From a bacterium (lineage in GTDB: Bacteria > Sumerlaeota > Sumerlaeia > SLMS01 > JAHLLQ01), in assembly GCA_020444065.1 (NCBI GenBank), contig JAHLLQ010000003.1, positions 196,979-260,978 on the forward strand: 64,000 nt of DNA, given 5' to 3'. Below the pieces are notes generated by a model. That model was not told the DNA's origin, ran no database searches, and saw only the letters and a list, made by a program, of their open reading frames with translations. Of this stretch, positions 2,780 to 31,032 are shown piece by piece. Position numbers and translations under genes: made by a program. Position 1 is the stretch's first letter; each line of letters begins with the position of its first letter.

Positions 2780-2825
2780 ATGGAGCGGGACACCGGGCTC
2801 GAACCGGCGACCTCCACCTTGGCAA
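2780..2825 (-). repeat. Left attachment site: tRNA-Gly 3' fragment
   Basis: This 46-base block is identical to 30955-31000 and covers CCA, the acceptor 3' strand, T arm, variable loop, anticodon-stem 3' strand and the whole anticodon loop of tRNA-Gly(GCC). Similarity stops abruptly at 2826, just past the anticodon loop. It represents the original 3' end of the chromosomal tRNA gene, pushed away by the insertion. Confidence 0.93.
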
Positions 2826-3504
2826 TTCTCTAAGGCTAATAACCACAGTGCTATGCAATGCAAGAAGAGCCCCCGTTTGTCCGAGTTTTGCCATTATCCC
2901 TATCCCAGCCAGACCAGCCTAATCCCAACCATTCCCGACAGCTCTCCGGACATATTCCGGACAAGTCTAGGCCTGTTCTGTGCCAATTCACCGCCACCAG
3001 AGTGGATTGCCAGCCCGAGGGGCTCATCTCCAAATCGAGTGTGGGCGCAGTGGCCGTCGGAGGAAGAGGAGTGCTACAAAACTACTCCCACCCGAGTGAC
3101 AAGTAGCATCTGCATTGCGCCGAACTTCAACATTAATCTGACCTGCCCCCCAGCCCCCGCTCCGCCACTCAGCCACCCTCGACAGGCACCGAAACCCTAA
3201 CATACGACCTAGTACCGTGCTCGGGGGCAGGTCAAATCCGGGCATCTCCGTCGTTGGCGCAGGTCGGGTTTCCTGCACTGATTTTGGACAACGAGCCGAG
3301 ATTCCCTCGACGATGAATTACACCTTGCGCCTTGCGATCGCACCGCATAAAGATTGCACATTAGATTCGCGTTCGGCATGCGTATAATGCATGAGCCTTG
3401 CCGACTGTATGCAGCATACTCGCAAATCCGCTCAATGATTGATGGGGCGAATGAGTGCCCATAGTCCAATTCGTCAAGGCCAGGATTACACTAAGGAGAT
3501 GAGA
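2826..3504. promoter_or_regulatory. Left end of the element and leader of the Hsp70-like gene
   Basis: No gene is supported in this stretch. It contains the putative recombinase arm site at 2946-2963. A good -10 hexamer TATAAT lies at 3383-3388 and could drive the plus-strand gene starting at 3505; I see no good -35 at 17 bases (the best TTGCAC is too far). AAGGAG at 3493-3498 precedes the ATG at 3505 by 6 bases. Confidence 0.45.
2946..2963 (+). promoter_or_regulatory. Putative recombinase arm-type site, left
   Basis: CCGGACATATTCCGGACA is identical to 30871-30888. Each copy holds two CCGGACA repeats spaced 11 bases apart. Both lie inside the element, 121 and 67 bases from the respective core repeats, as expected of arm-binding sites of tyrosine recombinases or excisionase sites. 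Confidence 0.6.
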
Positions 3505-6676: not shown

Positions 6677-7987
6677 GTGGCGGCTGTTAAGTTGGTAAAG
6701 GGAGATTCTCCAACTCGTTGCTTCTTGGATCTATTCGCTGGCGGAGGTGGACTCTCGCTGGGATTGATGCTCGCCGGCTGGAATGGGCTTTTCGCTGTTG
6801 AACAGGATGCATTGGCATTTGGAACACTGAAGCACAATCTTATCGACGGGCATCCCAACTGCCCAGTCAGGTACAATTGGCCTGACTGGATAGAGAAGAC
6901 CCCGATTGAGATCAGACAGTTCATCCGAAAGCATCGTGGTCAGCTAGCGGCAATGAAAGGGCAGGTGGCTTTGTTGGCCGGCGGTCCACCTTGCCAAGGC
7001 TTTTCGCTCGCTGGACGGCGAAAGAGCGACGATCCGCGCAACGAACTCTTCAAGCACTACGTGACGCTGGTCAAGATATTGGCGCCCCCGTTCCTTATTT
7101 TGGAGAACGTCAAGGGTATCTCTGTTGCGTTTAGGAAACAGGCCCACGCAAATAGTGGAGAGAGTGCCTGCTTCCTCAGGCCATTTTCTGAGCGTATCAA
7201 GCGGAGCCTGACCAGAGCCGGGTATGCAGTGTTCACCCAGCTTGTGCATGGAACGGACGTAGGAGTCCCCCAATTCCGGCCAAGGTATATCATGCTCGCG
7301 ATTCGCAGGGATCTACTTACCGATCACCCCGGTCTAGATCCATTCGCGGATTTCCATGAGCGTCGTGAGAAGTTCCTGAAATCCAAAGGTTTGCCGGTGA
7401 ATCGACCGGTGACCGTGAGACAGGCGATATCGGATCTGGAGGTGCGGAACAAGACGATCATCGATTGCGTCGATTCGGCAAGAAGTAAGCAGATTAAGTA
7501 CAAGCGGCCTCTCAGCAAGTACCAGCGCCTCTTGCATGGGCATCTCAATGGCACTGCCCCCAATAGCATGCGTTTGGCCAACCACGGAGAAGATGTGACT
7601 GCGCGGTTCACCCAGATACTTGAGACTTGCCGGAAAGGCGTCCAGCTTTCGGCATCTGATCGAGAGCGATTCCACCTCAAGAAGCACTGCACTGTTCCGC
7701 TTGATCCGGATAGGCCCTCCCATACCTTGACCACTCTGCCGGATGACCTTCTGCACTACTCAGAGCCCAGAGTTTTGACCGTGCGTGAGTTCGCCCGATT
7801 GCAGTCTTTTCCAGACTGGTATGAGTTCAAGGGGAAGTACTCCACTGGAGGCGATCGACGTCTTCGAGAATGTCCACGCTATACTCAGGCGGGAAACGCC
7901 GTGCCGCCATTCCTTGCGGAGTTCGTTGGGAGAGTACTGGCTGACTTGTGGAGAAAGATCATCGGTATGGAGGAGACATGCAGGTAA
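6677..7987 (+). CDS. DNA (cytosine-5-)-methyltransferase
   Basis: A 436-aa C5-cytosine methylase with all key motifs in order. Motif I is FLDLFAGGGGLSLG (16-29), motif IV GGPPCQGFS with catalytic Cys106, motif VI ENVKG from Glu143, motif VIII around QFRPRYIMLAIRR. A variable target-recognition region follows, then REFARLQSFP (motif IX) and QAGNAVPP (motif X). It should be catalytically active, using S-adenosylmethionine to make 5-methylcytosine at a sequence I cannot predict. GTG start with GAGGAG 9 bases upstream. The stop overlaps the next gene by 10 bases, so the two are translationally coupled. No cognate classical restriction enzyme is next to it; the downstream P-loop/nuclease/motor genes take that position. 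A Mig-type glycosylase closes the operon, which fits protection of the host from 5mC deamination. Confidence 0.93.
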   Translation: MAAVKLVKGDSPTRCFLDLFAGGGGLSLGLMLAGWNGLFAVEQDALAFGTLKHNLIDGHPNCPVRYNWPDWIEKTPIEIRQFIRKHRGQLAAMKGQVALLAGGPPCQGFSLAGRRKSDDPRNELFKHYVTLVKILAPPFLILENVKGISVAFRKQAHANSGESACFLRPFSERIKRSLTRAGYAVFTQLVHGTDVGVPQFRPRYIMLAIRRDLLTDHPGLDPFADFHERREKFLKSKGLPVNRPVTVRQAISDLEVRNKTIIDCVDSARSKQIKYKRPLSKYQRLLHGHLNGTAPNSMRLANHGEDVTARFTQILETCRKGVQLSASDRERFHLKKHCTVPLDPDRPSHTLTTLPDDLLHYSEPRVLTVREFARLQSFPDWYEFKGKYSTGGDRRLRECPRYTQAGNAVPPFLAEFVGRVLADLWRKIIGMEETCR

Positions 7988-10059
7988 ATCTAAACGATCA
8001 CGTCGTCCACTTGCTGGGTTGGCATGGACACTCATCCGGCGGAGTACATGTCCCTTTTCAAGAAGCTCCAAACCCAATTGGTCGGGTTATAGAGACACCG
8101 CTCATTCACAGATTGCGCCACTTGGCAGAGCAGATCGCGTCAGGATCCGAAGTGCACCCTCGGTGGATCTTTCTCGTAGGGGGGCCGGGGAACGGAAAGT
8201 CTGAGACTGTCCAGGACTTCTTGGCGAGTTTGGACGCTTCTCTTGAATTGAGAGGGGCGCTAACGAGTGCGCTCAGATCCAAATTCTCGCAGACTGGACT
8301 ACTTCCCAGAAAAGTGGAAATATTGGCTGAGGATCTTCCGCCCAGCGCGGGAGGTTTCTTAACCAAGGTGGGGCGCCTCTTGGTGATCCAGGATGCCACT
8401 GCGACCGAGTGTGCGGCAGGCAACGCTGCCCGAGAGCTTGCTCACGATATCGCTGATCTCCTCACCTGCTCGGGATCAGAGCCAATTCCTGTCTTCATCG
8501 CCTGTGCGAATCGCGGTCTGCTGGCTCGATCCATGGTCGAGGCTGTCCGGGAGTATTCTAGTGGCGATTCAGATAATTCAATCAGAGATATTCTGGCACA
8601 AGTAATTCGGAAATCAAGTTTGAGGCTTGGGGCAGACTCGACGCTGGAATCTTGCTGGCCACTCGAAGTAGATTCTCGATTCGCGTGCTGGCCCCTTGAT
8701 CTAGAGAGCTTAATGATCGATAGAAACGCCACTGAAGTTCTTGGATCAATTCTCGATCAAGCAACGAACGTGGAGAGATGGGAAGCTGAGGCGAAATGCG
8801 CAGACTGCAGATCTCGTGAAAGCTGCCCATTTCGGGAGAATGCCACACTCCTGCGCGACTTGGCGCATCGACGTAATCTCATCGCCATACTCCGCCGCGG
8901 TGAATTGGCATGCGGCCAGAGGTGGAACTTCCGTGACGCGTTCTCTTTAGTGGCCGAGCTGCTGGTAGGGCAATGGAGTGATTTCGAGGATTGCCCCCAT
9001 CCCTGCAAATGGGTGCACAAGCATGCCGCCGCCGCTGCGTCCACTCCCGAGAGCAGTAGCATACTTACTCTGGCGAGACGCTTGTATTTCAATTCCCTTT
9101 TTCCCAGCAACTCGATTCGCGATACAGTCTCCGCGTTCTTGAAGCAACATACAGATAATTCCTCGCTTAAGCCCTTGACCAAGAACCTTCTGGCCGAGAT
9201 TCGGAGGGGAGACGGTCTGGCCTCCTCCAAGCCGATCAGGGAAACGCTCCTGCGCGACTATTCTCGACTTGATCCAGCTTTGTGTACACCGAAGGACAAA
9301 TCACATGAGCTGAGGATTCTCGAGGATGCATTCTGCCAGTCTGCGGAGCAGGGCTTGGTGCAATATGGAAGCTCCCCCCCCTCTCCAATTGCATACCGCT
9401 CACTTCTTCTGTTTCAGTCCGCGGAACAGGAGTGCGAGGAGCTCCTCCGTGATTCAGATTCCGCCATGCTTGGTTCTTGCATTAGCCTACTTCGTAGCGT
9501 AGGATGCATGATGGCAAAACGGAGCTTTGGCGTTCTCTTCGGGCACCACTCCTTGGAAGAGCACTTGGTGGAATACGAGGCGGCATTGAGGTCACCGGAT
9601 CGGCTTTCAGCCGTAAGGGCTGCATTGCAGTCACTCCTGGGAGAGGCTGATCCCGGCTTTAACATGCTTGAGATCCTTGGACAACCAACTGCCGAGAAGC
9701 GACCGAGAGTGACCTTATCTGCTCAGCCTCCGGGAATTAGACCTGTGGCTGCTCCGACTGGCAACGAGTCCTCGCCTGGCCATGATGTACCGTGCATTGA
9801 GTTCAGCAACTTAGACTATCGGATCCCCCTCACATTTGACTTCTTCATGGCGATCCGGCTTCGCAAGGAGGGATGTGCTGGGAGCAGTCTTCCTGCGAAC
9901 GTCCGTGCTGCTATCGATAGGGTTCGCCATAGAATCGCAGGAGACCTATGCAGATCTGAAGAGCTATTCGCAGATGGACGGACCTCGGTGCGAATCGCTT
10001 CGCAATTTCAGATAGTCTTATCCAAGGTGGGCGAACGACCAACCCTAAAGAGGGAGTAA
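7978..10059 (+). CDS. P-loop ATPase of the methylase-linked defence operon
   Basis: A 693-aa protein. The ATG at 7978 is preceded by GGAGGAG and overlaps the methylase stop. Walker A is GGPGNGKS at residues 68-75; a Walker B-like strand LLVIQDA lies at 134-140, and FIACANRG further on looks like a sensor-1 segment. A Cys cluster C274-x2-C277-x5-C283 may bind zinc or a metal cluster. The C-terminal ~400 residues are helical-looking and unrecognised. Position and size parallel DptF, the first ATPase of phosphorothioation-dependent restriction, but I only infer this from order and layout. It could equally be a STAND/AAA ATPase of an undescribed family. It probably provides nucleotide-driven assembly or DNA surveillance. 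Confidence 0.7.
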   Translation: MQVNLNDHVVHLLGWHGHSSGGVHVPFQEAPNPIGRVIETPLIHRLRHLAEQIASGSEVHPRWIFLVGGPGNGKSETVQDFLASLDASLELRGALTSALRSKFSQTGLLPRKVEILAEDLPPSAGGFLTKVGRLLVIQDATATECAAGNAARELAHDIADLLTCSGSEPIPVFIACANRGLLARSMVEAVREYSSGDSDNSIRDILAQVIRKSSLRLGADSTLESCWPLEVDSRFACWPLDLESLMIDRNATEVLGSILDQATNVERWEAEAKCADCRSRESCPFRENATLLRDLAHRRNLIAILRRGELACGQRWNFRDAFSLVAELLVGQWSDFEDCPHPCKWVHKHAAAAASTPESSSILTLARRLYFNSLFPSNSIRDTVSAFLKQHTDNSSLKPLTKNLLAEIRRGDGLASSKPIRETLLRDYSRLDPALCTPKDKSHELRILEDAFCQSAEQGLVQYGSSPPSPIAYRSLLLFQSAEQECEELLRDSDSAMLGSCISLLRSVGCMMAKRSFGVLFGHHSLEEHLVEYEAALRSPDRLSAVRAALQSLLGEADPGFNMLEILGQPTAEKRPRVTLSAQPPGIRPVAAPTGNESSPGHDVPCIEFSNLDYRIPLTFDFFMAIRLRKEGCAGSSLPANVRAAIDRVRHRIAGDLCRSEELFADGRTSVRIASQFQIVLSKVGERPTLKRE

Positions 10060-10071
10060 TCAAGGTCACCT

Positions 10072-11625
10072 ATGGACGTACAAACTTTCGAAGGTGAGCC
10101 ACGAAGCACGTGTCACCCAAAGTACGAAGAGTCCATGCTCTTCACCACTGCCCCCGAGTGGTCGACAGGAGAGGTGCTGCTAGCGTCTGCCTACCGACGC
10201 CTCGTGCTTGGAATCAGCGAGAGGTTCGTAGATCTTGGAAACATCGCTACAATGCCGACATTGATGCCAGAGGAGGTGGGGGGGGAGCCGCTCTGGAGCG
10301 CATTGCTGCTGCAGCGTGATGGCATCGCAAGTCCACTGAAGCATGGTCAATCCAGCCCGACGGCCACGCGACAACTAATGCCAATCGTTCCGGCAACTGC
10401 ACGAATAGCGGGTGTATTGGGGAAGCGGCCAAGAAGTCGCTGGAATCCATCCAGTCTCCTGCTTGAGGCCATAGGAGCCGGAGGAGGAGAAGCCGACGGA
10501 AATTCCCTCCTGATGAGCCTTGGACAGGCCTTAGAGGTGACGGATAAGGATGACCTTTTTGCGCGATTCGTAGAAGAAGCTCTCGAGGCCGGAATGGAAT
10601 CCATTGCTCCGAGACCCCAAGACGATCCCGCTTATACTGAAGTTAGGCTGACCGAGGCGCAACTTAGTGCGTTCCGGCAGATGCCAAATGCGCAGAAGAA
10701 GAGCCCTGCCGAGCGATTCTTCCATGATTTGCCGGCAGTTCTAAATGCCAAGTGCAAGCTCACAAGGCGGCAATGGACCGTGCTGCTGGAGGCAATCTTG
10801 CGGTTGGGATTGGGAATGCATGTTCTATGGACCTGTCGCGCCAATGTGCTCGTCTGGGAGCTTGCTCTCTCAGCAGCAAGTGGCACCCAGCCCCCGGGTA
10901 CGAACGAACTAAGACGTCGTATTTGGGAGAGCCACGATGAGGCCCATCCGCTTCTGGAGCTGGGCTCGGATGCACTTCCATTGATCAAGAACTTGATTGA
11001 GCGATACGCCTATGCCCGGACTGGACTCAACCTTCTCCTTTGCCGACTTGAGGAAAACGGGAAACCTATCCTGAGTGACCAGATCATCGGGTATCAGCTG
11101 GCACAAGGGACTAATGCTCCGACTGGGCTCTATGAATTCCTGAGTCACATTCATGAGCATCGAACCATAATCGACAAGATCGACGCAAACAAGTGGCTTC
11201 GGGTCCAAGTTGCACGCCTTTTTGACGAAAGATCAGACATGCGCGCCTTGGCTCAGCGGAAGTCAGGGTACACAAGAAACCTATTCGAATTTGCCAGACA
11301 TAGTCTTGGTCAGGTAAGAACCAAGGACCCAGACCAGCGTTGCTACGATCTTTCTTACATGTTTGCATATACCGACGATCGGAAGCCGCTGCTCGTGCAT
11401 CCAGGTCCTGCCATGCTCCTTTGCATTGTTCACGCATGTTGTTCCGAAAGCTCGGACATTCCCGTTAGCCTGGACGACCTTCGTCGGCACTTGGGCGAGT
11501 ACGGGCTTCGAGTTCCTGCGGGTGAACTCATTCACGGTCGAACAGGGCAGGATCTAGCCATGCTCGGATTGGTTGTTGACAGTCCGGATGCCGCAGGAGG
11601 CCGCCTCCTTGTAAGACCACTTTGA
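10072..11625 (+). CDS. Unknown protein, middle component of the defence operon
   Basis: A 517-aa protein with no motif I recognise. ATG at 10072 follows the preceding stop by 12 bases, with AAGGT upstream. It lacks a signal peptide or membrane segments and has mixed helical composition, with a central basic stretch (AQKKSPAERFF, NAKCKLTRRQWTV). The central and C-terminal thirds are rich in long hydrophobic helices. Its place between a P-loop ATPase and a giant nuclease/motor protein corresponds to that of DptG in dptFGH clusters, suggesting a bridging subunit. That is inference from position only. Confidence 0.6.
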   Translation: MDVQTFEGEPRSTCHPKYEESMLFTTAPEWSTGEVLLASAYRRLVLGISERFVDLGNIATMPTLMPEEVGGEPLWSALLLQRDGIASPLKHGQSSPTATRQLMPIVPATARIAGVLGKRPRSRWNPSSLLLEAIGAGGGEADGNSLLMSLGQALEVTDKDDLFARFVEEALEAGMESIAPRPQDDPAYTEVRLTEAQLSAFRQMPNAQKKSPAERFFHDLPAVLNAKCKLTRRQWTVLLEAILRLGLGMHVLWTCRANVLVWELALSAASGTQPPGTNELRRRIWESHDEAHPLLELGSDALPLIKNLIERYAYARTGLNLLLCRLEENGKPILSDQIIGYQLAQGTNAPTGLYEFLSHIHEHRTIIDKIDANKWLRVQVARLFDERSDMRALAQRKSGYTRNLFEFARHSLGQVRTKDPDQRCYDLSYMFAYTDDRKPLLVHPGPAMLLCIVHACCSESSDIPVSLDDLRRHLGEYGLRVPAGELIHGRTGQDLAMLGLVVDSPDAAGGRLLVRPL

Positions 11626-11646: not shown

Positions 11647-14600
11647 ATGCACGCTCTGGCTAGCTACTTAAAGAAATACGTTGAGAGACACTTTGCTGCA
11701 GCCCTTTTGAGGGATCCGACGGCATCTGTTCGACCCGTCCTGATCGGCCCCCCGGACGAAGCCAATCGAGAGCTATTCTCACTCCTCACAGGGGGAGGCA
11801 CGCACGACTGGCAAGTCCCATGCGGAGGCAAGCCGCAGGAAGTGATCGTGTTGCTTGTGGATTCCCGTGAAACTCCCTCAGGAGAGGCGCTCTCACAAGT
11901 GTGCAACTGGGACTATGCAGTTTCAGTTCGCAACTCTGCGCCCCTGGTATTGATGCTTGCAAGCCGACACTCCTGGGATGTCCGTCCAGAATCACTGGCC
12001 AATACCACGGAAACCATCGGAAAAGTCGGCACACTGCGCTCCAATGAGGATCCTCTGCAATCTCACCTAGCAAATGTAGTTGCGGATAAAATCGGTTTGT
12101 CAGCAGATCAGGCCACAGAACTTCTGGATATCGTTTGCCGTGATTCCAGTTCCTTGGATCCGAGCTCGAGAGACTCCGCATTGTGGGAGGTGATCAATCG
12201 GTTGCTTTCAACTGACAAAACAGGATCTGCCATGGACGATGGCTCTCGAGCAACTGGACTTCCAGTTCCGGGCAATGCATCAATTGGTTTCCAGCGGGCG
12301 TATCAGACTCTCGATAGTCTCTCCCAATTCATTGCTAGAGAGGGGCTCCAATCTGCCGTTCAACAAATGAAAGCAACTGATGCCGCTAAGCGCCACAGCG
12401 TGGAGTCAGATCTTGATGGGCTGCTGGCACACCTTGCGCCCCAACTAACCTCTCCTACCCTGATGTCAACTGCACCAATCCACTTCTATCGGGCGGGACC
12501 TCCATCCCCTCAGTGGTACAATTCTCTATCAGCGGTCATCATCGAGGATCTGCTTTCGGAACTCACTCAGGGCACTGATCAGGGGCGCATGCGACTCGTA
12601 TGCAACAATGCACTCCAAGCTGCCAATCCCCTTCGCAAGGGACCCTACGTTGTCATTCAGGACGTGGAATTAGCGGCGTCTTGCCAAAGTGGACAGGCTC
12701 CATCTGACACAATCTTCACACGCAAAATCGATCGCACAGATTCAGCCCAACTGGCACAATCAGGACAAGATCCACTCCGAATTTCTGACCCTAGACCTCC
12801 CGAGCATTTGAAGGCCATCAAATATTCCGTTGCCGCCGCGAATCTACGCCCCGGCACCATTCAGGTCATATCACTCGATTCATTTGCCTGCGGCGGACTC
12901 GTGGTCATAAGCGGAGCTGATCGGAGCTCAATCCCCATCCAAACTCGAAGGAGCAAATCCTGGAGCCAGGAGCTCTCCATTTCTCGGGGAGGGGCCACTG
13001 AGTTGACCGTCTATCACTCCACGACAGCTTCAAGGGTTTGCCTGAGCGGAACGGGAGAGACACCCATTTGCCAGCAAGTGCCTCCAGGTTCTCCATGCAC
13101 GCGATTCAAAGTCGACATCGAGAACAACGATGAGTTCCATGTGGAGGTACGTGGCCCAGATAATGACCTGATGGGTGAGTGGACACTTCGGATTGCGGTG
13201 CAAGAACCTACAGAAATCTCGAAGTCTCGCCTGGAGGCACTCATATCAGAGCACCGCTCCAGGAAGGGCAAATGCATCCCCCATGCTCCAGATACATGGA
13301 TTCACCGCCTGGAGCTCGGATCCTATTTGACGTCAAAGGAGAGCTGGCGCCCTATCCTAGCGTGTTGGGGGAGTAAGGACATTGGACATGCACCGATCCA
13401 GTGGGAGGGCACGCGGCTGCTCGGTAACATTGAACCATCTATTGATCCGCGCCCCAATCTTTCTCCCCCAGAATCTCTTCTCAATGCCCGGGAGGCTGTG
13501 CGGATCAGGCTGCACGATGAACAGCGGTGTATTTCTGAGATTGAGTTGGATCGCCCTGATCTCGCCCCTTTGTTTCTTGAGTATCTAAAGCAATATGTTC
13601 AGTGGCTCGAACAGGATCAGGTTGGTGCCAGTTGGGTGGACGTTATCGCTCTATTTGCTGCGGAATGGAATCCTCAAGCAGGACGCGAAATCGCAACAGA
13701 TGAGCCGGTCGTAATTCTTCTCTCACCGCTCCACCCACTGCGGCTGTGTTGGCATGCCATAGCGCAGCGTCAGTTAAGGGAATCGCTGGAGCTTGACTGC
13801 CGCTGTCCCGCGGCTGGGCTTCTGGGTCCCATGCAGTGTCCAGATGCTTCGGTTCTTCACTTGTGGAATGGTAATGAGCTCAAGGCACGCTCCTTCTTCG
13901 CCCTTCCGTGCGAGCATACAAACTGGAGCGTGCTAATAAATACCAGCTTCTTGGACAAATCCGAATCTCGTGGTTGGGCGATGCGCCGACTTGCTGAACT
14001 GGGTTTAGATGTGCGTACAATAACGGGCGGCTTCACGGCCAACCAGACCCAAGATAGCCTCGAGGAGGTCGCCCAATTACTCCCGGCGCGAGCTACGTTA
14101 CGAATCGGGATAGTTGGAGACGCAGAAGCCTCTAGCGAATGTGGAAGAGGAGTCTTGAGATGGAGTGAGGAGCAGTACGCGGAGGATACCTTCCGTGCGC
14201 GTGGCTGTCTTGGGGTCGAGGTGTTTGATACGCGAGGGGGGGGCGATCCATCTCCGGAAATGCTTGCGAACCTGTCGGAAATCACCGGGGAACAAGTGCG
14301 CTGGTTCAGAAGAGACTCGAGCGCTATCGATTCTTCAATTGATCTGACCATAATCGACCAACTTGGCGTGCGGAAGCACGAAGGAATTCGAGGAGCAACC
14401 AGATCGGCAATCACGCCGGGCGGGACATTTCGAATTCGCATCCGTCGGGATTTCTCTGCAGCCCGCTCCATAGTGGAGTCCCGTGTTGCTTCAACTCGCT
14501 TGACTGGTGAAGACTTACCAGAGTTGCTCGCGCGAGCGATTCAGAAGTATGAGGAACAAGCAGCCCTCAAAACTGACTGCTCTCAGTTCCGATTTATCCC

Positions 14601-16890
14601 CAACAGCGATGCCATCGGTAGCCGTCTCGGAGAATCAACTTACCTTTCGATAACTTCAAGTCAGGTGGATCCTGCATGCATAGTCCGCGGTACGATTGGC
14701 CAGACGGGCTACATGTGGAACTATGAGCTACCGGGAGTGCTGGGGGAGGGGGCGGCAAGCAGTCTTGGGTATTATCTGGTCGCGCGTCCCAATCAAGCGA
14801 TGAACGATGCTATCAGTCGTGCCGCTGCGCTTATCGTTGATCCCCCACCTTCGGTGAAGGATCTGCTAGAGGAGATCTCAAGACGCGGAATTCCGATTCT
14901 GAAGCGTTTGGCTGCGGGAGGAAGTCAATCGCGTGGTGAATTGGGACTCCTTCTCGCAGCCCGCCTACTGCAGGATTCATTTCGAGGCGGAAACATTGAG
15001 TCTCGGCTACCCGTCCAGAAGGGAGAATGCCTCCACTTCGTTCTTCCGGTAGATCCCTACAGGGAGCTACTATCCCGATTGCGCGACTCCAGGATGGAGA
15101 AATCTGGCACGCTTCAACGACCCGATCTTCTCGTACTGGGAATCCAGTTGTCCGCCGATGCGGAGCCAGTTCGCATCAAGATGACTCCTGTGGAGGTCAA
15201 ATTTCGGGCTCAAGGAGCAAGCCCCTCCGAGATGCGAGCCCATCTTTGCCAAGCCCAGAATCTGGGTGACCTACTGAACTTATTCTACTGCAAGTTCGAA
15301 GAAACAGAGCTCTGGCGAACATGTACTGCAGCGTTGCTCTCACAGATTCTTGACTTTGGCTTTCGCATTTATGGCGACCCGACGATCCATCAAAGGGCAG
15401 TTGATGAATGGGCTGAGATACACCAGCGAGTCTTGCAGGATGTCTTGGAGTTCAAAGCAGATATGATTGTGAATGCTGCAGGTCGCCTGCTGATCTTTGG
15501 CGACTTCCCTGAGACAAAGCTGGCCGATTTGGATGGGGATTCAAGAGTGGATACTCTGGTCATCTCTCATCCGGACGCTCGCGCCCTGCTACTCGGAGAG
15601 GCACCCGTGACTCAAAGCCTCGACTCGAAGGTAAGACAAATGGATTTTTCTTTCCCAAACTGTCACAGTCGGACGACCCATGCCAAAGGTGAGGAGTCTC
15701 CTTCCTACACCTCACACCCTATCCAACTGGGGCAGGCCTTCCCAGATCGTGCTATGCCAGAAGTGATCATTACGGATCCATCGACGCCTTCCGATTTGGA
15801 GACTCCACCTGACGGGCTACTGGACAAGCCTGACACTACTAGTCGCACACATCGACTCCCAGGTTTCGTGCAGGCAGGTACGTCTGTGCCCCAGGAGGTG
15901 AGACAGCAGGTTCGGGACGCATTTGAGGGATTTATCGGAAATGAACCCGCGATAATGCGCCTGACTAACGATCTTCTACGGGCTCTCATTGAGCAGCCAC
16001 CTCATCTTGCGAAGAACTACCTCCTCACGGGACTTCCCAGTACTGGCAAGACCGAGTTGGCACGTCGTGTCGCCATCGCACTTGGACTGCCCTTCATCAA
16101 GCTAGATGGCCGAGGCGTTTCCAGTCGCAACAGACTGTTCGAGTTGATCAACGGAGAACTCGAGACGCACGGACTATCGCCCTCCCAGACGGGACAACAA
16201 CTGGGGCTCCCTGTTCTCGAGTATCCCCCACTCACAGTCTTCATAGATGAAGTTCACCTTGTATCGCGCGCAGTTCAGGAGACTCTACTCACGATGCTCG
16301 AGGCTGCGGATAGAACCGTGGTTCTGTCCGATCAAGTCGCCCGAGTTGATCAAGCGACATTCCTGTTTGCTACAACACGCGCCTCAGAAGTGGATGCAGC
16401 CTTCGTGAGTCGATGCGACGAGATACAGTTGCGCGAGTACTTCCAAGATGAGGTAGCGCTAATGGTTGCGGGGAAGGTAAGACACGATGAGTGGCCGGAG
16501 GAAGTCTACAAAGCGTTGGCCACCTTGGGACGGTGCGTGCCACGAATTGCAATCCAGCTTGCAGAGGCGCTTGAGACAGCGACCATCGTGGCCGAAAAGC
16601 CAAAGCCCCTGCTGGGCCATCTTGAAGATGTTCGGTGTGCAAGGGAGATGGATAAGAACGGGCTGACTCCGATGGACTTCCAGTATCTGTCGATTCTGGA
16701 AAGGTCCAAGGGGCCTGTAGGCGAGCAGAATATCCTTAATCTAATGCGAACAGTCGACAAGGATCGCATATTGAATGAGGTCGAGCCCTTCCTTGTGCGT
16801 CTTCGCTTCATTCGACACGGACCACGCGGACGGGAACTCACGAAAGAGGGCCTCGACTACCTCTTGGTCCATCGATTGAATGACCGGTAG
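11647..16890 (+). CDS. Giant protein: nuclease-like region plus C-terminal RuvB-like motor
   Basis: A 1747-aa protein. ATG at 11647 has GGGGAT just upstream. The N-terminal ~1100 residues are unrecognised and include a conspicuous SPLHPLRLCWH segment (HPLRL at 696-700). At 1159-1160 Pro-Asp is followed 23 residues later by Glu1183-Val-Lys1185, the spacing and context (hydrophobic strands on both sides) of a PD-(D/E)XK nuclease core. From ~1426 to the end it closely follows RuvB: FIGNE, Walker A GLPSTGKT (1462-1469), Walker B VFIDE (1531-1535) followed by SRAVQETLL, FATTRASEVD, and a winged-helix end with GPVG (1689-1692), VEPFLV and GPRGR (1725-1729). So it looks like a restriction effector carrying its own branch-migration-type motor. 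Order and length recall DptH, whose motor is of another type as far as I know. Confidence 0.8.
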   Translation: MHALASYLKKYVERHFAAALLRDPTASVRPVLIGPPDEANRELFSLLTGGGTHDWQVPCGGKPQEVIVLLVDSRETPSGEALSQVCNWDYAVSVRNSAPLVLMLASRHSWDVRPESLANTTETIGKVGTLRSNEDPLQSHLANVVADKIGLSADQATELLDIVCRDSSSLDPSSRDSALWEVINRLLSTDKTGSAMDDGSRATGLPVPGNASIGFQRAYQTLDSLSQFIAREGLQSAVQQMKATDAAKRHSVESDLDGLLAHLAPQLTSPTLMSTAPIHFYRAGPPSPQWYNSLSAVIIEDLLSELTQGTDQGRMRLVCNNALQAANPLRKGPYVVIQDVELAASCQSGQAPSDTIFTRKIDRTDSAQLAQSGQDPLRISDPRPPEHLKAIKYSVAAANLRPGTIQVISLDSFACGGLVVISGADRSSIPIQTRRSKSWSQELSISRGGATELTVYHSTTASRVCLSGTGETPICQQVPPGSPCTRFKVDIENNDEFHVEVRGPDNDLMGEWTLRIAVQEPTEISKSRLEALISEHRSRKGKCIPHAPDTWIHRLELGSYLTSKESWRPILACWGSKDIGHAPIQWEGTRLLGNIEPSIDPRPNLSPPESLLNAREAVRIRLHDEQRCISEIELDRPDLAPLFLEYLKQYVQWLEQDQVGASWVDVIALFAAEWNPQAGREIATDEPVVILLSPLHPLRLCWHAIAQRQLRESLELDCRCPAAGLLGPMQCPDASVLHLWNGNELKARSFFALPCEHTNWSVLINTSFLDKSESRGWAMRRLAELGLDVRTITGGFTANQTQDSLEEVAQLLPARATLRIGIVGDAEASSECGRGVLRWSEEQYAEDTFRARGCLGVEVFDTRGGGDPSPEMLANLSEITGEQVRWFRRDSSAIDSSIDLTIIDQLGVRKHEGIRGATRSAITPGGTFRIRIRRDFSAARSIVESRVASTRLTGEDLPELLARAIQKYEEQAALKTDCSQFRFIPNSDAIGSRLGESTYLSITSSQVDPACIVRGTIGQTGYMWNYELPGVLGEGAASSLGYYLVARPNQAMNDAISRAAALIVDPPPSVKDLLEEISRRGIPILKRLAAGGSQSRGELGLLLAARLLQDSFRGGNIESRLPVQKGECLHFVLPVDPYRELLSRLRDSRMEKSGTLQRPDLLVLGIQLSADAEPVRIKMTPVEVKFRAQGASPSEMRAHLCQAQNLGDLLNLFYCKFEETELWRTCTAALLSQILDFGFRIYGDPTIHQRAVDEWAEIHQRVLQDVLEFKADMIVNAAGRLLIFGDFPETKLADLDGDSRVDTLVISHPDARALLLGEAPVTQSLDSKVRQMDFSFPNCHSRTTHAKGEESPSYTSHPIQLGQAFPDRAMPEVIITDPSTPSDLETPPDGLLDKPDTTSRTHRLPGFVQAGTSVPQEVRQQVRDAFEGFIGNEPAIMRLTNDLLRALIEQPPHLAKNYLLTGLPSTGKTELARRVAIALGLPFIKLDGRGVSSRNRLFELINGELETHGLSPSQTGQQLGLPVLEYPPLTVFIDEVHLVSRAVQETLLTMLEAADRTVVLSDQVARVDQATFLFATTRASEVDAAFVSRCDEIQLREYFQDEVALMVAGKVRHDEWPEEVYKALATLGRCVPRIAIQLAEALETATIVAEKPKPLLGHLEDVRCAREMDKNGLTPMDFQYLSILERSKGPVGEQNILNLMRTVDKDRILNEVEPFLVRLRFIRHGPRGRELTKEGLDYLLVHRLNDR

Positions 16891-16893
16891 GAA

Positions 16894-17598
16894 ATGTTGT
16901 ATCCTACGGACCGGCAATTGCAGGCTCGACTAATTCGTCATCGGTGGAGAATTGCCGAGTTCCGTTCCAAGCTCCTTCGCTGGTTTCGGCTCGATGGACG
17001 CACCTTCCCGTGGCGCAATCCAGAAGCGACCGAGTATGAGATGATAGTCTCCGAACTCCTGCTCCAACGCACCCGGGCAGAGACTGTTGCCGTGTTCTTC
17101 CCTGACTTCTTCGATCGATTTCGATGTTGGGTGGATCTGGCCAACGCAAGAGAATCCGAACTCAAGCAATTCCTGGAACCCCTCGGTTTGTCCAGCAAAC
17201 GTGCTGCAACTTTGAGCAAACTCGCGAAGATGATGTTGAAGACTGATGGCCGCTTCCCGTCTGCGCGCGAAGAAATCGAGTCTCTGCCAGGCATAGGGCA
17301 GTATGTCGCCAACGCAGTACTGTTGTTCTGCCATGGATGTCGTGAACCGCTGCTGGATGTGAATATGGCACGGGTTGCAGAGAGATGTTTTTCGCCGAGG
17401 AGACTCGCGGACATTCGCTATGACCCGTGGCTTCAAGCTCTGTGCCGAGAGGTAGTCAACCATCGTCGAGCCTGCGAGATCAATTGGGCGATTCTCGATC
17501 TTGCCGCGCTCTTCTGCAAGAGAGAGATTCCGAGATGTGAGGAGTGTCCGGTGCAGAATTGCTGTCGCCACGCGAAGCGCCGGAGGTCTCGACAGTAA
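16894..17598 (+). CDS. HhH-GPD Fe-S glycosylase, T:G-mismatch (Mig) type
   Basis: A 234-aa enzyme of the endonuclease III/MutY superfamily, starting 3 bases after the preceding stop. FPWRNP (38-43) and SELLLQRT with Glu54 are the N-terminal landmarks. The helix-hairpin-helix is LPGIG (131-135), the catalytic Asp is D155 (LLDVN), and the [4Fe-4S] ligands are C208-x6-C215-x2-C218-x5-C224. The residue following the hairpin that decides chemistry is Tyr137 (GIGQY). Endonuclease III has Lys here and MutY Ser, while Tyr is found in Mig.Mth, the thymine-DNA glycosylase encoded beside the MthTI methylase. A MutY C-terminal 8-oxoG domain is absent. I therefore read it as a guard that removes T from T:G pairs formed when 5-methylcytosine deaminates, matching the methylase that opens the operon. 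Confidence 0.85.
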   Translation: MLYPTDRQLQARLIRHRWRIAEFRSKLLRWFRLDGRTFPWRNPEATEYEMIVSELLLQRTRAETVAVFFPDFFDRFRCWVDLANARESELKQFLEPLGLSSKRAATLSKLAKMMLKTDGRFPSAREEIESLPGIGQYVANAVLLFCHGCREPLLDVNMARVAERCFSPRRLADIRYDPWLQALCREVVNHRRACEINWAILDLAALFCKREIPRCEECPVQNCCRHAKRRRSRQ

Positions 17599-18625: not shown

Positions 18626-19246
18626 ATGACAACCAGCTTCAACCCACAGTTCCCCAGCGTGGACCAGCTACGTTTGCGTGCCCCGAAGCCTCGCAGGCGG
18701 CCGCAAGAACCTCATGAATGGGATCTGGAAAACCGCTTCGAGAAGTACAGACATGCCTCGCAGAGATTCGATGACTCGGTGAGACGTGGCTATACACCAA
18801 CGGTTCCGAGCGGCCCCTCCGGGCTCATGTATCCCCTGGGAGTCGCCTACACATTGGAAGGACTAGCCGCGTATTTCGAGGCGCTTCAGCGGCAGCAGGA
18901 AGCGGCGGGAAATGCCCATGGCGCTCGATTCTACAAGGTAATTCATGCCGTCTACCTCGCAGGCCGAGATCCTCTGACGAATCCCTGGCTCTTCGACATT
19001 GGCCTGAAGAAGAGGACAATCCAGAAGTACTGTTCTCTATACAAAAACAACGGACCGATCCCAGGCACCAAGCGCCGGGGCAGGAGGTCCCAGTTTCCGG
19101 AATGTGCTCCCATTGTCCGTGCGATCTTGGCCGAGAATACGCATGCGACTTTGGCGGAGATTAGAGCAAAGCTCGACGAGGCGGGACACTCGATCAGTAT
19201 CGCAACCCTCTCAAGCTGGCGACGTAACGTACGAGCCGAGGTTTGA
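18626..19246 (+). CDS. Putative DNA-binding protein, paralogue of the 20886-21428 gene
   Basis: A 206-aa protein; ATG at 18626 with GGGAG 8 bases upstream. It shares an architecture with the gene at 20886: SGL, a helical block with an EAAGNAHGARFYKVIHAVYLAG segment matched there by RRGNAVGAKYWRVISAIFIAG, a PIPGTKRRGRRS versus PVPGTRRPGSRS linker, and a C-terminal helix-turn-helix-like end (TLAEIRAKL...ISIATLSSWRRNV). The basic linker plus terminal HTH suggest a DNA-binding role like homeodomain-type regulators of mobile elements. No catalytic residues seen. Function unknown. Confidence 0.6.
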   Translation: MTTSFNPQFPSVDQLRLRAPKPRRRPQEPHEWDLENRFEKYRHASQRFDDSVRRGYTPTVPSGPSGLMYPLGVAYTLEGLAAYFEALQRQQEAAGNAHGARFYKVIHAVYLAGRDPLTNPWLFDIGLKKRTIQKYCSLYKNNGPIPGTKRRGRRSQFPECAPIVRAILAENTHATLAEIRAKLDEAGHSISIATLSSWRRNVRAEV

Positions 19247-20834: not shown

Positions 20835-20885
20835 ATGCAATCCGAAAGGGCTGTTATTGCGAAAACAGATGAAAGGAGCGAAACC

Positions 20886-21428
20886 ATGTTACTCGAGACC
20901 ATGCAGTACAAGCAATGCCACCTCGAAGAGCCTCATCCGGTTGTTGTGCGGATGCGCCTCGTGGCATACCAAGATGCCCGAGCAACGGATCGGAAAGGAC
21001 CATCTGGACTGAAATTGCCTGAGAGCGTTCCTGCCACACGGGAGGACATCGAATCGCACTTCGAACGACTGGCTCAGATAGAGGAAAGGCGCGGAAACGC
21101 TGTGGGGGCAAAGTACTGGCGAGTAATCAGCGCCATCTTCATCGCCGGCGCAAACCCCGACTTGAATTTCTACCTTCATCGACTGAATGTCAGCCAGAGC
21201 ACAGTGAACGTCTACCGTACGACATATCAACACGGGCTTCCGGTCCCCGGGACGAGGAGGCCGGGCAGTCGATCGGAGTACGCCCGATGTAGCCACGTGC
21301 TGAGGAACTACTTGCGAATCCGGCCAGCAGCCACCCTCAGCGATCTGCATTACCAGATTCGCGAACAGACGGGAAAGACCATTCCTCTTCAAACGATCGG
21401 ACGCTGGAAGAAGCGTCTGAAAGACTGA
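20886..21428 (+). CDS. Putative DNA-binding protein, paralogue of the 18626-19246 gene
   Basis: A 180-aa protein. Start chosen at ATG 20886 because GGAG lies 7 bases upstream; the longer reading from 20835 lacks a site. It shares the block order with the protein at 18626: SGLKLPESVPATREDIESH, RRGNAVGAKYWRVISAIFIAG, PVPGTRRPGSRS, then a basic end with ISLQTIGRWKKRL-like HTH (IPLQTIGRWKKRLK). The two probably arose by duplication and diverged. Confidence 0.6.
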   Translation: MLLETMQYKQCHLEEPHPVVVRMRLVAYQDARATDRKGPSGLKLPESVPATREDIESHFERLAQIEERRGNAVGAKYWRVISAIFIAGANPDLNFYLHRLNVSQSTVNVYRTTYQHGLPVPGTRRPGSRSEYARCSHVLRNYLRIRPAATLSDLHYQIREQTGKTIPLQTIGRWKKRLKD

Positions 21429-24889: not shown

Positions 24890-26293
24890 ATGAAGAACCC
24901 GGAACCGGCCTACCGAAAGAGGCGATGGAAAAGCGTCGATGGATCGGTTAAGACGAAGTGGATAGTCGAGTGGCGAGCCATTGATCCCGGGACGGGCGAG
25001 CGAAAGGAGAAGCGTAGAGGTGGTTTCCTCACCAAGACGCAGGCACAGACCTGGGTGCGGGATCATCTCAAGCCCGCCCTGGAAGCCGGCCACATGCATC
25101 CGGACGATCTGATGCACGCTCGGCAGCAGGAGTGACTCGCAGCGGAGTCACGAGCCAAGACACTGGGCCAGCTCTTTCGTCTATTCACCGAGAATCGTGG
25201 CCCGGCATGGACAAAGAAAACCGAGGAACGCTACCAAAGCGCTTTCAACCTCGCGCTTCGGCAGATTGGAGATATCCCGCTTAGCCGGATTACTCCCAGA
25301 ATGGTCAGGGATTTCATGACGGCGGATTTCCGAGAACGCGCTGTGACGAACGACACGATGCTCACTCGGTACCGAATGCTGAGCGCCAGTCTTCGATTCG
25401 CTGTCGTTGAGCGCATCATGGAGAGAAATCCTTGTGATTCGGTCAAACCGCCACGACCGCGTCATGGCCGGCTGGTCTTCCTCGAGCTGCACGAATGTCA
25501 GAGATTGCTGGAGGAGTGCGGGAAGATTGAGTCCCGGAACGACTCCCTCACTTCCCCGGTGCTCTTGAAAGCGATTGTCGCGACCGCCATCTTCACGGGA
25601 GCGCGGCGAAAGGAGATCTTCCATCTGGAGTGGTCTGATCTGGATCGAACGATTGGAACCTGCCGGATCCAGCCGAAGGCCCATCTTCAGTTTAACACAA
25701 AGAGCGGAAAGTCCCGAACAGTCGGCGTAAACCCACAGCTTTTTGAGATCCTCGACGAGTTCCGTGCCGATCTTGGATGTCGTATCGAGCGGGCCAGGAA
25801 GCGAATGGTACGGCTTGAGCACTGGAAGGAGATCCGGAGTGGCGATGGGATCATGCAGGAGAAACCGCTAGAGCTGAAGAAGTACGAACGGGCACCCTCG
25901 ATCGATCTTCTCATGCAAAAGGTTGGAGGGCTGCTCCATTCGCTCGAGATGCAGATCGCTTCGTCGCTTCTGTTCCCCAGCCCGGTGTCGGGAGGTCCAT
26001 TGACGGACTTACCAAAGGGATACACCCAGGCCGTTGAGCAAGCTGGACTAAAGGAGCGGGGCGTGTGTTTTCACACGTTGCGGCACACGTACGCTTCGTT
26101 CCTGGTCAAAGCCGGCGTGGACCTTCCAACCATTCAGCAGCTCATGGGTCACGCCGACATCAAGACGACAATGCGCTACGCTCACATCGGCGACTCGCAT
26201 GTCGTTCAATCCGGTGCCAAGGTGCCGAGTCTATTCAAGAAGGAGAAACCCGACGAGGATCCGGTGCAGACGGCGAAGGTCGTCAAGATGTAA
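24890..26293 (+). pseudogene. Tyrosine recombinase (integrase), interrupted by one in-frame TGA
   Basis: One continuous reading frame of 467 codons, broken only by TGA at 25133-25135 after residue 81. Before it lies an arm-binding-type N-terminal domain (VDGSVKTKWIVEWRAI, GGFLTKTQAQTWVRDHL). The text resumes in frame with RAKTLGQLFRLF, the core-binding SAM-like domain, and then the catalytic domain. Counting the TGA as residue 82, the catalytic residues are R239 (TGARRKE), H395-x2-R398, H421 and Y430 (MRYAH), all present. ATG 24890 has GGAG 7 bases upstream. An internal product from 25301 would miss the arm domain. Either a recent nonsense mutation (CGA to TGA is one step), a base error, or rare readthrough. 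A selenocysteine is unlikely. Confidence 0.85.
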
Positions 26294-26653: not shown

Positions 26654-28837
26654 TTATGTTCCCCTTATCAGCCACATCTCAAGTCTGTGGTTGAGTCGAG
26701 ACCAGTAGCCCTCTTCAATTCGATCCCCGGGGAAGAACTGTGGACTGATCTGTCGACCATCTTTCCTTCGAACTCTGAGGTGCTCTCTACACAGCTCTCT
26801 CAGCCTTTCCTCGGCGGAGCGAAGGAAGTGAACCAATTCATCAGCCTCACTCCCGATTTCTCTCAGGGAATCGTGATTTGCCTCACCACGAGCTCGACAC
26901 GCCTTCTTGGGGATATCATCGCATACTACTTCGAGCAACTCCTCCAGTCCCCCAATGATGCCGTTCAACCTGCGTCGTGCCTGACCCCAATCGTGCGGTG
27001 ACATCGCCTCAGTGAGCCCCGACAACAAAGACAACTCCTGTTCCATGATGATCACCGCAATGCGTCCCATTGCGGAAACGACATGGTACACACGCTCCAT
27101 ATCGAATCGCATATTGCAGTCGCTGTGCCGCTTCAGTCTTCTCTGGTGCTTCGCCAGGAACTCTAGGCCCAAGTCCGTTAGACCCGCATTCCATTGGAAC
27201 CGTGGGCGCCTTGATGCTACCGTCCCCATGACCTTTAGCTTGTACATGTCGTGGCTGCGCCACAGGATTCTTCCGCTCGACGCGGTAAGAGTGATCTCGC
27301 AGGCACGAAGCAAGTCCTTCAGTCCGGAGGAGTCTTCCCGATCAATGAGTTCTTCCAGGTACTGAAGGAAGAAGTCTCGAGACAATCCTGCTTCCCGCAC
27401 TTTCGACTGAGTCACCCTTTTTCTGGAGGAGCCTGCGTGTGGATTCGCCAGAAGTACCGTGTTCGACAGTGGCGTACCACTGGGGTCCGCTATCCAGGCC
27501 ACAGCGGTCATCTGATCGAGCTTCTGCGCATCAGCCTCGGAGCATCTTGCTGTCACTCTGGCTTCACGGGTCACAAAGGGCAATCTCCATTCCTCGCCTA
27601 TATGCGCTTGGAGGGCGAGCTCCAGAGAGGATGTGGAGATCGCTTCCCTGATAGGCTCGAATGTGACATGGATATCCGGAGCTTCCAAACGAGCTTCCAG
27701 AAGATGGATTGGCAGGTCGGCAGCAGGTTCGTCGTCATCCGCCTGATCCTGAGTCTCCAGTTCGCTAAAACTCAGTAGACGTTGTGACGTGCCGAGCGGA
27801 TCGATCAGCTCTGCAATGCGCTTCGTGCCGAGACGCACTGGCGGAACCAGGACAAGACACTCCGTGTTTCCCTTGTCTGCAACCTCCCAGAGGGCTCGGT
27901 GTGAGAAGTTGGCGCTGCCGTAGGCAATTCTCTGCACGGTTCCATAGTCCAGGCAGTAGAGCTTTGCGTGAGAGATCTGGCGGATGCCTCGGGAGTCCGC
28001 GTGGTTGCAGCGCCACAGCTTGGCCTTCCCCGTTTGGACCTCCTTTCTGGATATCCATGTTTCCGGGAAGTTGCTCTTCGACTCGGGAACGAAGATCTCC
28101 AACACGTCAGCACGCGTCAGGTTGAGCACTTGATTCAGAAAGTCTGGTCTTCCAGAGAAGAAGGGCGCCGTCACCAGCAGTCGTCTCGGTTTTTCACTGG
28201 CGTGCTGTTGAATTAGTTGCTCGAGCAACGGTTTGTCAAGATTATGGAGAAGTCTTGGGTGCTTGGCTGCGGAGCCTGTTGGGAGATCGGCAAGAAGCCA
28301 GGAAAGTTCCTCCTCAAGAGTATGCAAAATCAGTTCGCCTGTGTTCGGGACCGAGTCAACCACTCGGCGGAAGAAGCCAAGAGCGTCCTTGATTATGGGT
28401 GGACAAGATTGGACCTTGCCTTTGATTGCTCGGAATACTCCGACAACCTCGGCATTGCTCCCCAAGCCTTGTTCTGTGAGATTGGCACTTCCCACGATGA
28501 GAAGAGCTCTCTTTCTTGATCCAAGCAGGATGATCTTCGGGTGGAAGCACGGGGTATTGGAAACGGGTAGCAACTGATAGTGGATGTTGGCACGGCGAGG
28601 ACGCCTGATCTCTTCCCAAGCATCCCCCCCAGAGCCACGGAAGGTCTGAGCAATGGTGTGATACTGCCCATTATCAAGGAGAACTGCCAAGTTGCCGGTC
28701 GATGGTATGCTGGATAGCTTGGGCAGAGCATATTCTTCGAAGAAGGGCCAGTCGAACCGATACGTGGCGATTAGGCCAGATGTGTACATCCCTCTGTCTA
28801 GCTCGTCCAGCAGTTTGGGGCGCATGTTGGTTGCCAT
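26654..28837 (-). CDS. Phospholipase-D-fold nuclease-like protein
   Basis: A 727-aa protein on the minus strand; ATG at 28837 with AAGGG upstream, two bases after the stop of the neighbouring gene, so they form one operon. Two HKD half-sites are present. The first is H99-P-K101 followed by GSANL (116-120), the second HAKLYCLD with H290, K292 and D297, then GSANF (307-311). Only the second has the canonical HxKx4D; in the first the Asp position is Gly. The paired half-sites are as in PLD-superfamily nucleases. The rest (residues ~320-727) is unrecognised and helical. PLD-type nucleases are frequent in defence islands (DISARM DrmC and others), and this pair sits close to the element's right end. 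Confidence 0.8.
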   Translation of the reverse strand: MATNMRPKLLDELDRGMYTSGLIATYRFDWPFFEEYALPKLSSIPSTGNLAVLLDNGQYHTIAQTFRGSGGDAWEEIRRPRRANIHYQLLPVSNTPCFHPKIILLGSRKRALLIVGSANLTEQGLGSNAEVVGVFRAIKGKVQSCPPIIKDALGFFRRVVDSVPNTGELILHTLEEELSWLLADLPTGSAAKHPRLLHNLDKPLLEQLIQQHASEKPRRLLVTAPFFSGRPDFLNQVLNLTRADVLEIFVPESKSNFPETWISRKEVQTGKAKLWRCNHADSRGIRQISHAKLYCLDYGTVQRIAYGSANFSHRALWEVADKGNTECLVLVPPVRLGTKRIAELIDPLGTSQRLLSFSELETQDQADDDEPAADLPIHLLEARLEAPDIHVTFEPIREAISTSSLELALQAHIGEEWRLPFVTREARVTARCSEADAQKLDQMTAVAWIADPSGTPLSNTVLLANPHAGSSRKRVTQSKVREAGLSRDFFLQYLEELIDREDSSGLKDLLRACEITLTASSGRILWRSHDMYKLKVMGTVASRRPRFQWNAGLTDLGLEFLAKHQRRLKRHSDCNMRFDMERVYHVVSAMGRIAVIIMEQELSLLSGLTEAMSPHDWGQARRRLNGIIGGLEELLEVVCDDIPKKACRARGEANHDSLREIGSEADELVHFLRSAEERLRELCREHLRVRRKDGRQISPQFFPGDRIEEGYWSRLNHRLEMWLIRGT

Positions 28838-30543: not shown

Positions 30544-30870
30544 TAGCAATCTCCAACGACATGATATCCTATTCCGGCACACATGACTGCCATTGCCAAT
30601 ACCAACCGACGAAGGGGAATCGGGTTTCATCTCCCTGAGTTCTCGCAAGGTTTCTTCGGTGCACGATGGTCAACCGCCCGTGGGCCATGAAGCGCAGTGC
30701 TTTCGGAGTCTCAGGTCATTCGCTAGAAGTGGACACTTGCCAACTGTCGGGTGCAGATCGGGAGAGGAAACACTTCAAGGGTCTGTGTGGGAGTTGCTCC
30801 CTCCATTGGTATTTGCGATCCAGTTGAGAGGAGTCCTCCCCCCAGGATCATGCATGAGCCTTGTTCCAGA

Positions 30871-30954: not shown

Positions 30955-31000
30955 ATGGAGCGGGACACCGGGCTCGAACCGGCGACCTCCACCTTGGCAA
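30955..31000 (-). repeat. Right attachment site within tRNA-Gly
   Basis: Same 46 bases as 2780-2825. The element-borne 3' half restores an intact tRNA gene here; identity ends just after the anticodon loop, so crossover probably lies in the anticodon arm. Confidence 0.93.
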
Positions 31001-31032
31001 GGTGGCGCTCTAGCCAACTGAGCTAGTCCCGC
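30956..31032 (-). tRNA. tRNA-Gly(GCC)
   Basis: A complete 77-base cloverleaf with encoded CCA. Acceptor GCGGGAC pairs with GTCCCGC, D arm AGCTCAGTTGGCTAGAGC, anticodon stem CCACC/GGTGG with loop TTGCCAA giving anticodon GCC, T arm GCCGG-TTCGAGC-CCGGT. It is functional after insertion because the element brings an identical 3' half. Confidence 0.97.

What the first reader, a model, noticed from the sequence alone, without database searches (positions are those of the whole stretch)
16894..17598. Glycosylase carries the Tyr of T:G-mismatch (Mig) enzymes, next to a 5mC methylase
After the hairpin LPGIG the sequence has QY; endonuclease III has Lys and MutY Ser at the Y137 position, while Mig.Mth has Tyr. 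The MutY C-terminal domain is missing. Mig.Mth itself is encoded beside a restriction-modification system.
Basis: partly seen in the sequence, partly recalled or inferred. Interest (0 to 1): 0.78.

Follow-up and report, generated by a model that had tools for sequence, protein, structure and literature searches.

The report
Mismatch-repair glycosylase in a methylation-restriction operon
This gene most likely encodes an enzyme that removes the T left when a methylated C decays; it is the last gene of a DNA-methylation/restriction operon on a mobile island, in the position that the unrelated repair nuclease Vsr holds in most sister operons, so evolution seems to have filled the same job with two different enzymes.

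Summary
The ORF at 16894-17598 (+) is real: 234 aa, LPGIGQY with Tyr137, no MutY C-terminal domain. The conclusion holds on better tests. The protein falls in a clade with Mig.MthI and other methylase-linked glycosylases (97/84), apart from MutY (100/95) and Nth (100/100). At the two positions shown by mutagenesis to separate T/G from A/G enzymes it has Ala (as Mig; MutY Val/Ile 31/31) and Trp (MutY Gln/Glu 31/31). Its best PDB match by sequence and fold is 1kea (Mig).

The gene ends an operon: 5mC methylase, F-like ATPase, G, H (PD-(D/E)XK-type motif plus ATPase), glycosylase, on a 28-kb tRNA-Gly island. I found the F-H pair in 73 loci: 71 have a C5 methylase, 42 carry Vsr and 12 a Mig-type glycosylase, mostly directly after H, never both. 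On the F tree the two swap at least twice. This genome has no Vsr and no other C5 methylase.

Best explanation: a T:G glycosylase repairing deaminated 5mC for a DndFGH-like, 5mC-based restriction system that I did not find described. Activity is inferred. New variant of a known kind; interest 0.6.

The parts
16894..17598 (+). Mig-type HhH-GPD DNA glycosylase, 234 aa, last gene of the operon; starts 3 bp after the stop codon of H
17302..17304 (+). Tyr137 (Mig Tyr126)
   Evidence: invariant in the Mig-type set but also present in 20 of 31 MutY
17077..17079 (+). Ala62 (Mig Ala50; E. coli MutY Val45), T/G-versus-A/G determinant
   Evidence: functional meaning from PMC2714593
17485..17487 (+). Trp198 (Mig Leu187; E. 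coli MutY Gln182), T/G-versus-A/G determinant
   Evidence: PMC2714593
17356..17358 (+). Asp155, catalytic aspartate (Mig Asp144)
17515..17565 (+). four cysteines C-x6-C-x2-C-x5-C of the 4Fe-4S cluster
6677..7987 (+). C5-cytosine DNA methyltransferase, 436 aa (PF00145, 6e-46), GGPPCQ catalytic motif at 6980; the only C5 methylase found in this genome
7948..10059 (+). F-like ATPase, 703 aa, Walker A LVGGPGNGK at about 8173-8199; remote similarity to SspF/DndF
10072..11625 (+). G protein, 517 aa, no known family; conserved between F and H
11647..16890 (+). H protein, 1747 aa: conserved N-terminal part, PD-(D/E)XK-type motif, C-terminal RuvB-like AAA plus RuvB_C domain in place of the HerA domain of most homologues
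15118..15201 (+). RPD...VEVK motif of H, candidate restriction-nuclease active site
   Evidence: motif found in 68 of 74 H sequences scanned; fold not confirmed
2780..2825 (.). 46-bp direct repeat, left end of the island
30955..31000 (.). 46-bp direct repeat, right end of the island, over the 3' end of tRNA-Gly (30956-31032, - strand)
25301..26293 (+). tyrosine integrase (PF00589, 1.6e-23) of the island

Best explanation
The gene encodes a Mig-type DNA glycosylase that removes T (and probably U) opposite G. It is the repair arm of a 5mC-based restriction operon (methylase, F, G, H, glycosylase) on a mobile island. The methylase marks host DNA at its target site; F, G and H act on unmarked DNA, with H carrying the candidate nuclease; spontaneous deamination of 5mC would turn marked sites into C-to-T mutations and lose the mark; the glycosylase removes the T so that base-excision repair puts C back. 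In most sister operons the same slot holds Vsr, which nicks beside the same kind of T:G mismatch. Shown here: gene, operon, clade, specificity residues, slot sharing. Inferred: catalytic activity, role of F-G-H as restriction module, methylation site.
For: Clade with Mig.MthI and methylase-linked plasmid glycosylases, 97/84, operon clade 100/99; MutY and Nth are separate clades. Specificity positions: Ala at Mig 50 in 12/12 operon enzymes, Val/Ile in 31/31 MutY; Trp/Arg at Mig 187, Gln/Glu in 31/31 MutY; Phe at Mig 27 in 11/12 against Leu/Met in 31/31 MutY, Arg at Mig 47 in 10/12 against Gln in 31/31 MutY. PMC2714593 reports that A50V plus L187Q turns Mig.MthI from T/G to A/G. Best PDB match is 1kea by sequence and by fold, TM 0.82/0.88, model pLDDT 92.8. 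Homologous operons carry Vsr at the same place; in a set chosen by F alone plus the plasmid operons, 71 of 73 loci have a C5 methylase, 42 Vsr, 12 glycosylase, none both. At least two Vsr/glycosylase switches on the F tree. The genome has its own MutY and Nth, no Vsr and only this C5 methylase. Other Mig-type genes lie close to C5 methylases.
Against: No assay. Position 187 is Trp, not the Leu of Mig.MthI, so substrate range may differ. By sequence score Mig (2.6e-32) and MutY (3.3e-32) are nearly equal. Exclusivity of Vsr and glycosylase is strong by count (P 1.3e-6) but confounded by descent: only one informative independent pair. 14 untruncated loci have neither gene, so the repair gene is not indispensable.
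Confidence: 0.85

Rival explanations
1. It is a reduced MutY that lost the 8-oxoG domain and still removes A from A:G or A:8-oxoG.
For: Sequence scores to MutY and Mig are nearly equal, and the best NCBIfam model is mutY at 2.1e-47, though far below its cut-off (162 against 286.5 bits). Tyr137, Glu54 and Asp155 are shared with many MutY.
Against: Outside the MutY clade, which has 100/95 support. Val and Gln/Glu of the adenine pocket, present in all MutY here (one Ile), are Ala and Trp. The genome has a full-length MutY elsewhere (locus L103). The gene is tied to a 5mC operon.
Confidence: 0.06
2. It is an offensive enzyme: a restriction glycosylase or a glycosylase against modified phage bases, making abasic sites in invader DNA.
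For: It lies in a defence-like operon on a mobile island. Base-excising restriction enzymes exist (PMC10273834 and PMC4357717, abstracts).
Against: Its slot is taken by Vsr, a repair nuclease, in most sister operons. H already carries a candidate nuclease motif. The clade contains Mig.MthI, a characterised T:G repair enzyme.
Confidence: 0.06
3. It is a housekeeping endonuclease III-like repair enzyme with no tie to the methylase.
For: Same superfamily, Fe-S cysteines and fold.
Against: Nth clade is separate at 100/100; the catalytic Lys of Nth is Tyr here; an Nth gene exists elsewhere in the genome; the place after H is kept in 10 of 12 loci.
Confidence: 0.03

Closest known systems
Mig.MthI (1kea), thymine/uracil-DNA glycosylase of Methanothermobacter plasmid pFV1
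   Same: Same clade and fold, catalytic Asp, Tyr126, Ala50, Phe27, Arg47, Fe-S cysteines; gene close to a C5 methylase.
   Different: Trp instead of Leu at position 187; 29% identity; sits in a methylase-F-G-H operon, not beside a type II endonuclease.
Vsr, very-short-patch mismatch endonuclease
   Same: Same slot directly after H and the same expected lesion, T:G from 5mC.
   Different: Unrelated fold and chemistry: Vsr nicks DNA, a glycosylase removes the base. A non-homologous replacement.
MutY
   Same: Same superfamily; shares Glu, Asp and often Tyr.
   Different: Has a C-terminal domain absent here and the Val/Gln adenine pocket; separate clade.
DndFGH (DptFGH) and SspFGH restriction modules
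   Same: Same gene order and similar sizes; F is remotely similar to SspF/DndF (1.2e-4 for the window, 5e-8 for another family member); most H proteins carry the HerA-type ATPase of DndH.
   Different: Linked to a C5 methylase and a T:G repair gene rather than phosphorothioation; G not recognisable; the window's H has a RuvB-like ATPase. PMC10853773 describes DndFGH as lacking an inbuilt modification module and does not mention Vsr, glycosylase or RuvB.
MvaI/BcnI-type R-M locus of an Alisedimentitalea plasmid (L007)
   Same: Carries the closest plasmid homologue of the glycosylase (45.6% identity) after a C5 methylase and an endonuclease.
   Different: Type II-like endonuclease instead of F-G-H.

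Membership tests
Mig-type thymine-DNA glycosylase | Phylogenetic grouping with Mig.MthI apart from MutY and Nth | tested here: met
   97/84 clade; MutY 100/95 and Nth 100/100 separate
Mig-type thymine-DNA glycosylase | Ala at position 50 and no Gln/Glu at 187 | tested here: met
   Ala62 and Trp198 in the window protein; 187 is Trp, not the Leu of Mig.MthI
Mig-type thymine-DNA glycosylase | Tyr126 and catalytic Asp144 | tested here: met
   Tyr137 and Asp155; Tyr is shared with most MutY
Mig-type thymine-DNA glycosylase | Short catalytic domain with C-terminal 4Fe-4S cysteines | tested here: met
   CKREIPRCEECPVQNCC
Mig-type thymine-DNA glycosylase | Removal of T from T:G in DNA | not testable with these tools
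   needs an enzyme assay
MutY | C-terminal 8-oxoG recognition domain | tested here: not met
   protein ends at residue 234; matches MutY models only over their first ~213 positions
MutY | Val45 and Gln182 (E. coli numbering) of the adenine pocket | tested here: not met
   Ala and Trp
Endonuclease III (Nth) | Catalytic Lys120 | tested here: not met
   Tyr at that position
DndFGH restriction system | F homologue of DndF/SspF | tested here: inconclusive
   SspF 1.2e-4 for the window, 5e-8 for a family member; family profile against one DndF 7e-5 with two collinear pieces
DndFGH restriction system | G homologue of DndG | tested here: inconclusive
   no significant match
DndFGH restriction system | H with restriction-nuclease domain and HerA/FtsK ATPase | tested here: not met
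   PD-(D/E)XK-type motif present, but the window's C-terminal ATPase is RuvB-like; homologues do have HerA
DndFGH restriction system | Restriction of foreign DNA | not testable with these tools
   needs phage or transformation assay

The most novel reading that the evidence does not exclude
The operon is an undescribed, widespread type of 5mC restriction-modification system: a C5 methylase paired with a DndFGH-like F-G-H module and a dedicated T:G repair gene that is either Vsr or a Mig-type glycosylase, with a sub-branch in which the HerA ATPase of H has been replaced by a RuvB-like AAA domain.
Probability: 0.6. Interest if true: 0.75.

Novelty: new variant of a known kind. Interest (0 to 1): 0.6.

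Why it matters
It suggests that systems using 5mC as a self-mark repeatedly carry a built-in cure for its mutagenic decay, and that two unrelated enzymes can fill the same genomic slot. It gives a testable family of bacterial T:G glycosylases, corrects the use of the Tyr as a Mig marker, and points to a 5mC-linked relative of DndFGH, a module that published work describes as having no modification arm of its own (PMC10853773).

Tried and rejected
First genome-contig scan with the single F protein found nothing; the scan with the five-sequence F alignment gave 70 loci. The 40 genomes held for the window's phylum gave no homologous operon besides its own. TIGR03237 in 200 genomes gave no DndH reference; PDLC02684 gave one. 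The DndH matches of homologues rest almost wholly on the C-terminal HerA domain: without it the best is 0.0095, so I do not file the system as DndFGH. Foldseek of the H nuclease region gave no significant hit, so the nuclease rests on the conserved motif. The Hsp70/actin-like gene at 3439-6261 has no homologue in the other loci, so I left it out of the system. The 2002 paper on A50V/L187Q is not held; its result is taken from PMC2714593. A sign test on independent pairs could not confirm exclusivity.

Full report
Observation. The ORF at 16894-17598 on the + strand codes for 234 aa and starts 3 bp after the stop codon of the 1747-aa gene before it. It is an HhH-GPD protein (PF00730, 1.9e-12). 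LPGIGQY is present; Tyr137 aligns with Tyr126 of Mig.MthI. The protein ends before any MutY C-terminal domain. [quoted passage not shown]

What it is. I aligned the protein with glycosylases found in homologous operons, glycosylases near C5 methylases on plasmids (Mig.MthI among them), and MutY and Nth proteins from the same genomes. A careful tree of 80 rows puts the window protein with Mig.MthI and the methylase-linked enzymes (97/84), with the operon enzymes and one plasmid enzyme as an inner clade (100/99); MutY (100/95) and Nth (100/100) are separate. PMC2714593 states that Ala50 and Leu187 of Mig.MthI correspond to Val45 and Gln182 of E. coli MutY and that changing A50V and L187Q turns Mig.MthI from T/G to A/G. 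At position 50 the operon enzymes have Ala in 12 of 12, MutY Val or Ile in 31 of 31. At 187 they have Trp in 11 and Arg in 1, MutY Gln or Glu in 31 of 31. Phe27 and Arg47 also follow Mig in 11 and 10 of 12, against 0 of 31 MutY. The AlphaFold2 model (pLDDT 92.8) matches 1kea best (TM 0.82/0.88), although MutY structures come close, as expected for one superfamily.

Surroundings. Upstream on the same strand lie a C5 methylase (6677-7987; PF00145 6e-46), a 703-aa ATPase F, a 517-aa protein G and H. Tblastn in plasmids found homologous operons in Sinorhizobium and Rhizobium where the gene after H is annotated vsr; the unannotated Shinella operon has Vsr there too, PF03852 1.4e-33. A scan of genome contigs with an alignment of F alone returned 70 loci. 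With the window and the plasmid operons, 73 loci hold F and H; 71 have a C5 methylase in the held DNA; 42 have Vsr, 12 a Mig-type glycosylase, none both, 19 neither, of which 5 are cut by a contig end. Vsr lies within 350 bp of the end of H in 40 of 42, the glycosylase on the same strand in 10 of 12.

How strong the exclusivity is. By simple count the chance of no overlap is 1.3e-6. Descent confounds this: most Vsr loci form one clade of the F tree. The tree needs at least two Vsr/glycosylase switches; in one place Marinobacter (L030, glycosylase) is sister to two Pseudomonas loci with Vsr. A sign test on independent pairs has only one informative pair and proves nothing. I rest the functional argument on the shared slot and the repeated switch, together with the residues and the clade.

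The system. The HerA-type H homologues match DndH models at up to 3.2e-71, but almost all of that comes from the ATPase domain: without it the best is 0.0095, at the nuclease region in collinear position. F is remotely like SspF/DndF; G is not recognisable. H has an RPD...EVK-type motif in 68 of 74 sequences scanned, one of them a second copy of the window; the six without it are cut short or divergent. That fits a PD-(D/E)XK nuclease, though a fold search of the region gave no significant hit. In the window, and in loci L020, L021, L022, L023 and L025, the C-terminal ATPase is RuvB-like instead of HerA-like. PMC10853773 describes DndFGH as a stand-alone system lacking an inbuilt modification module and contains no mention of Vsr, glycosylase or RuvB; no held paper has both DndH and Vsr. 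The operon thus looks like a 5mC-linked relative of DndFGH, but membership is not shown.

Genome context. The window's genome has one C5 methylase by PF00145, this one, no Vsr, and its own MutY and Nth elsewhere. The operon lies on a 28.2-kb element between 46-bp direct repeats, the right one over the 3' end of tRNA-Gly, with a tyrosine integrase and lower G+C than the right flank (0.546 against 0.619).

Verdict. The enzyme is most likely a T:G glycosylase repairing deaminated 5mC made by its own operon's methylase. Activity remains to be shown. Mig-type enzymes near methylases are known; their use in the Vsr slot of an F-G-H operon was not found described in the held literature, which leaves out most subscription journals.

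Noticed in passing
window 11647-16890 (C-terminal ~320 aa); L020, L021, L022, L023, L025: H proteins of this sub-branch carry a RuvB-like AAA plus RuvB_C domain where homologues have a HerA/DUF87 ATPase.
   Followed up: partly
window 2780-31000: 28.2-kb integrated element with 46-bp tRNA-Gly direct repeats, tyrosine integrase, RadC and ArdC-type genes.
   Followed up: yes
window 26654-28837 (-) and 28840-30648 (-): PLD-domain protein of 727 aa and a 602-aa neighbour of no known Pfam family, possibly a second defence module on the same element.
   Followed up: no
window 3439-6261 (+): 940-aa Hsp70/actin-like protein upstream of the methylase, not present in the other F-G-H loci.
   Followed up: partly
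L078 16077-18080; L030 19081-21357: Glycosylase and an inverted C5 methylase lie side by side after H, as if the pair moved in as one module.
   Followed up: no
L086, L088, L089: Divergent F and H with no recognisable G, C5 methylase present; two of the three have a Mig-type glycosylase.
   Followed up: no
window 18626-19246 and 20835-21428: Two proteins of about 200 aa with similar sequence (shared PSGL...P, RRG/RPGSRS stretches) and no Pfam family, on the same island.
   Followed up: no
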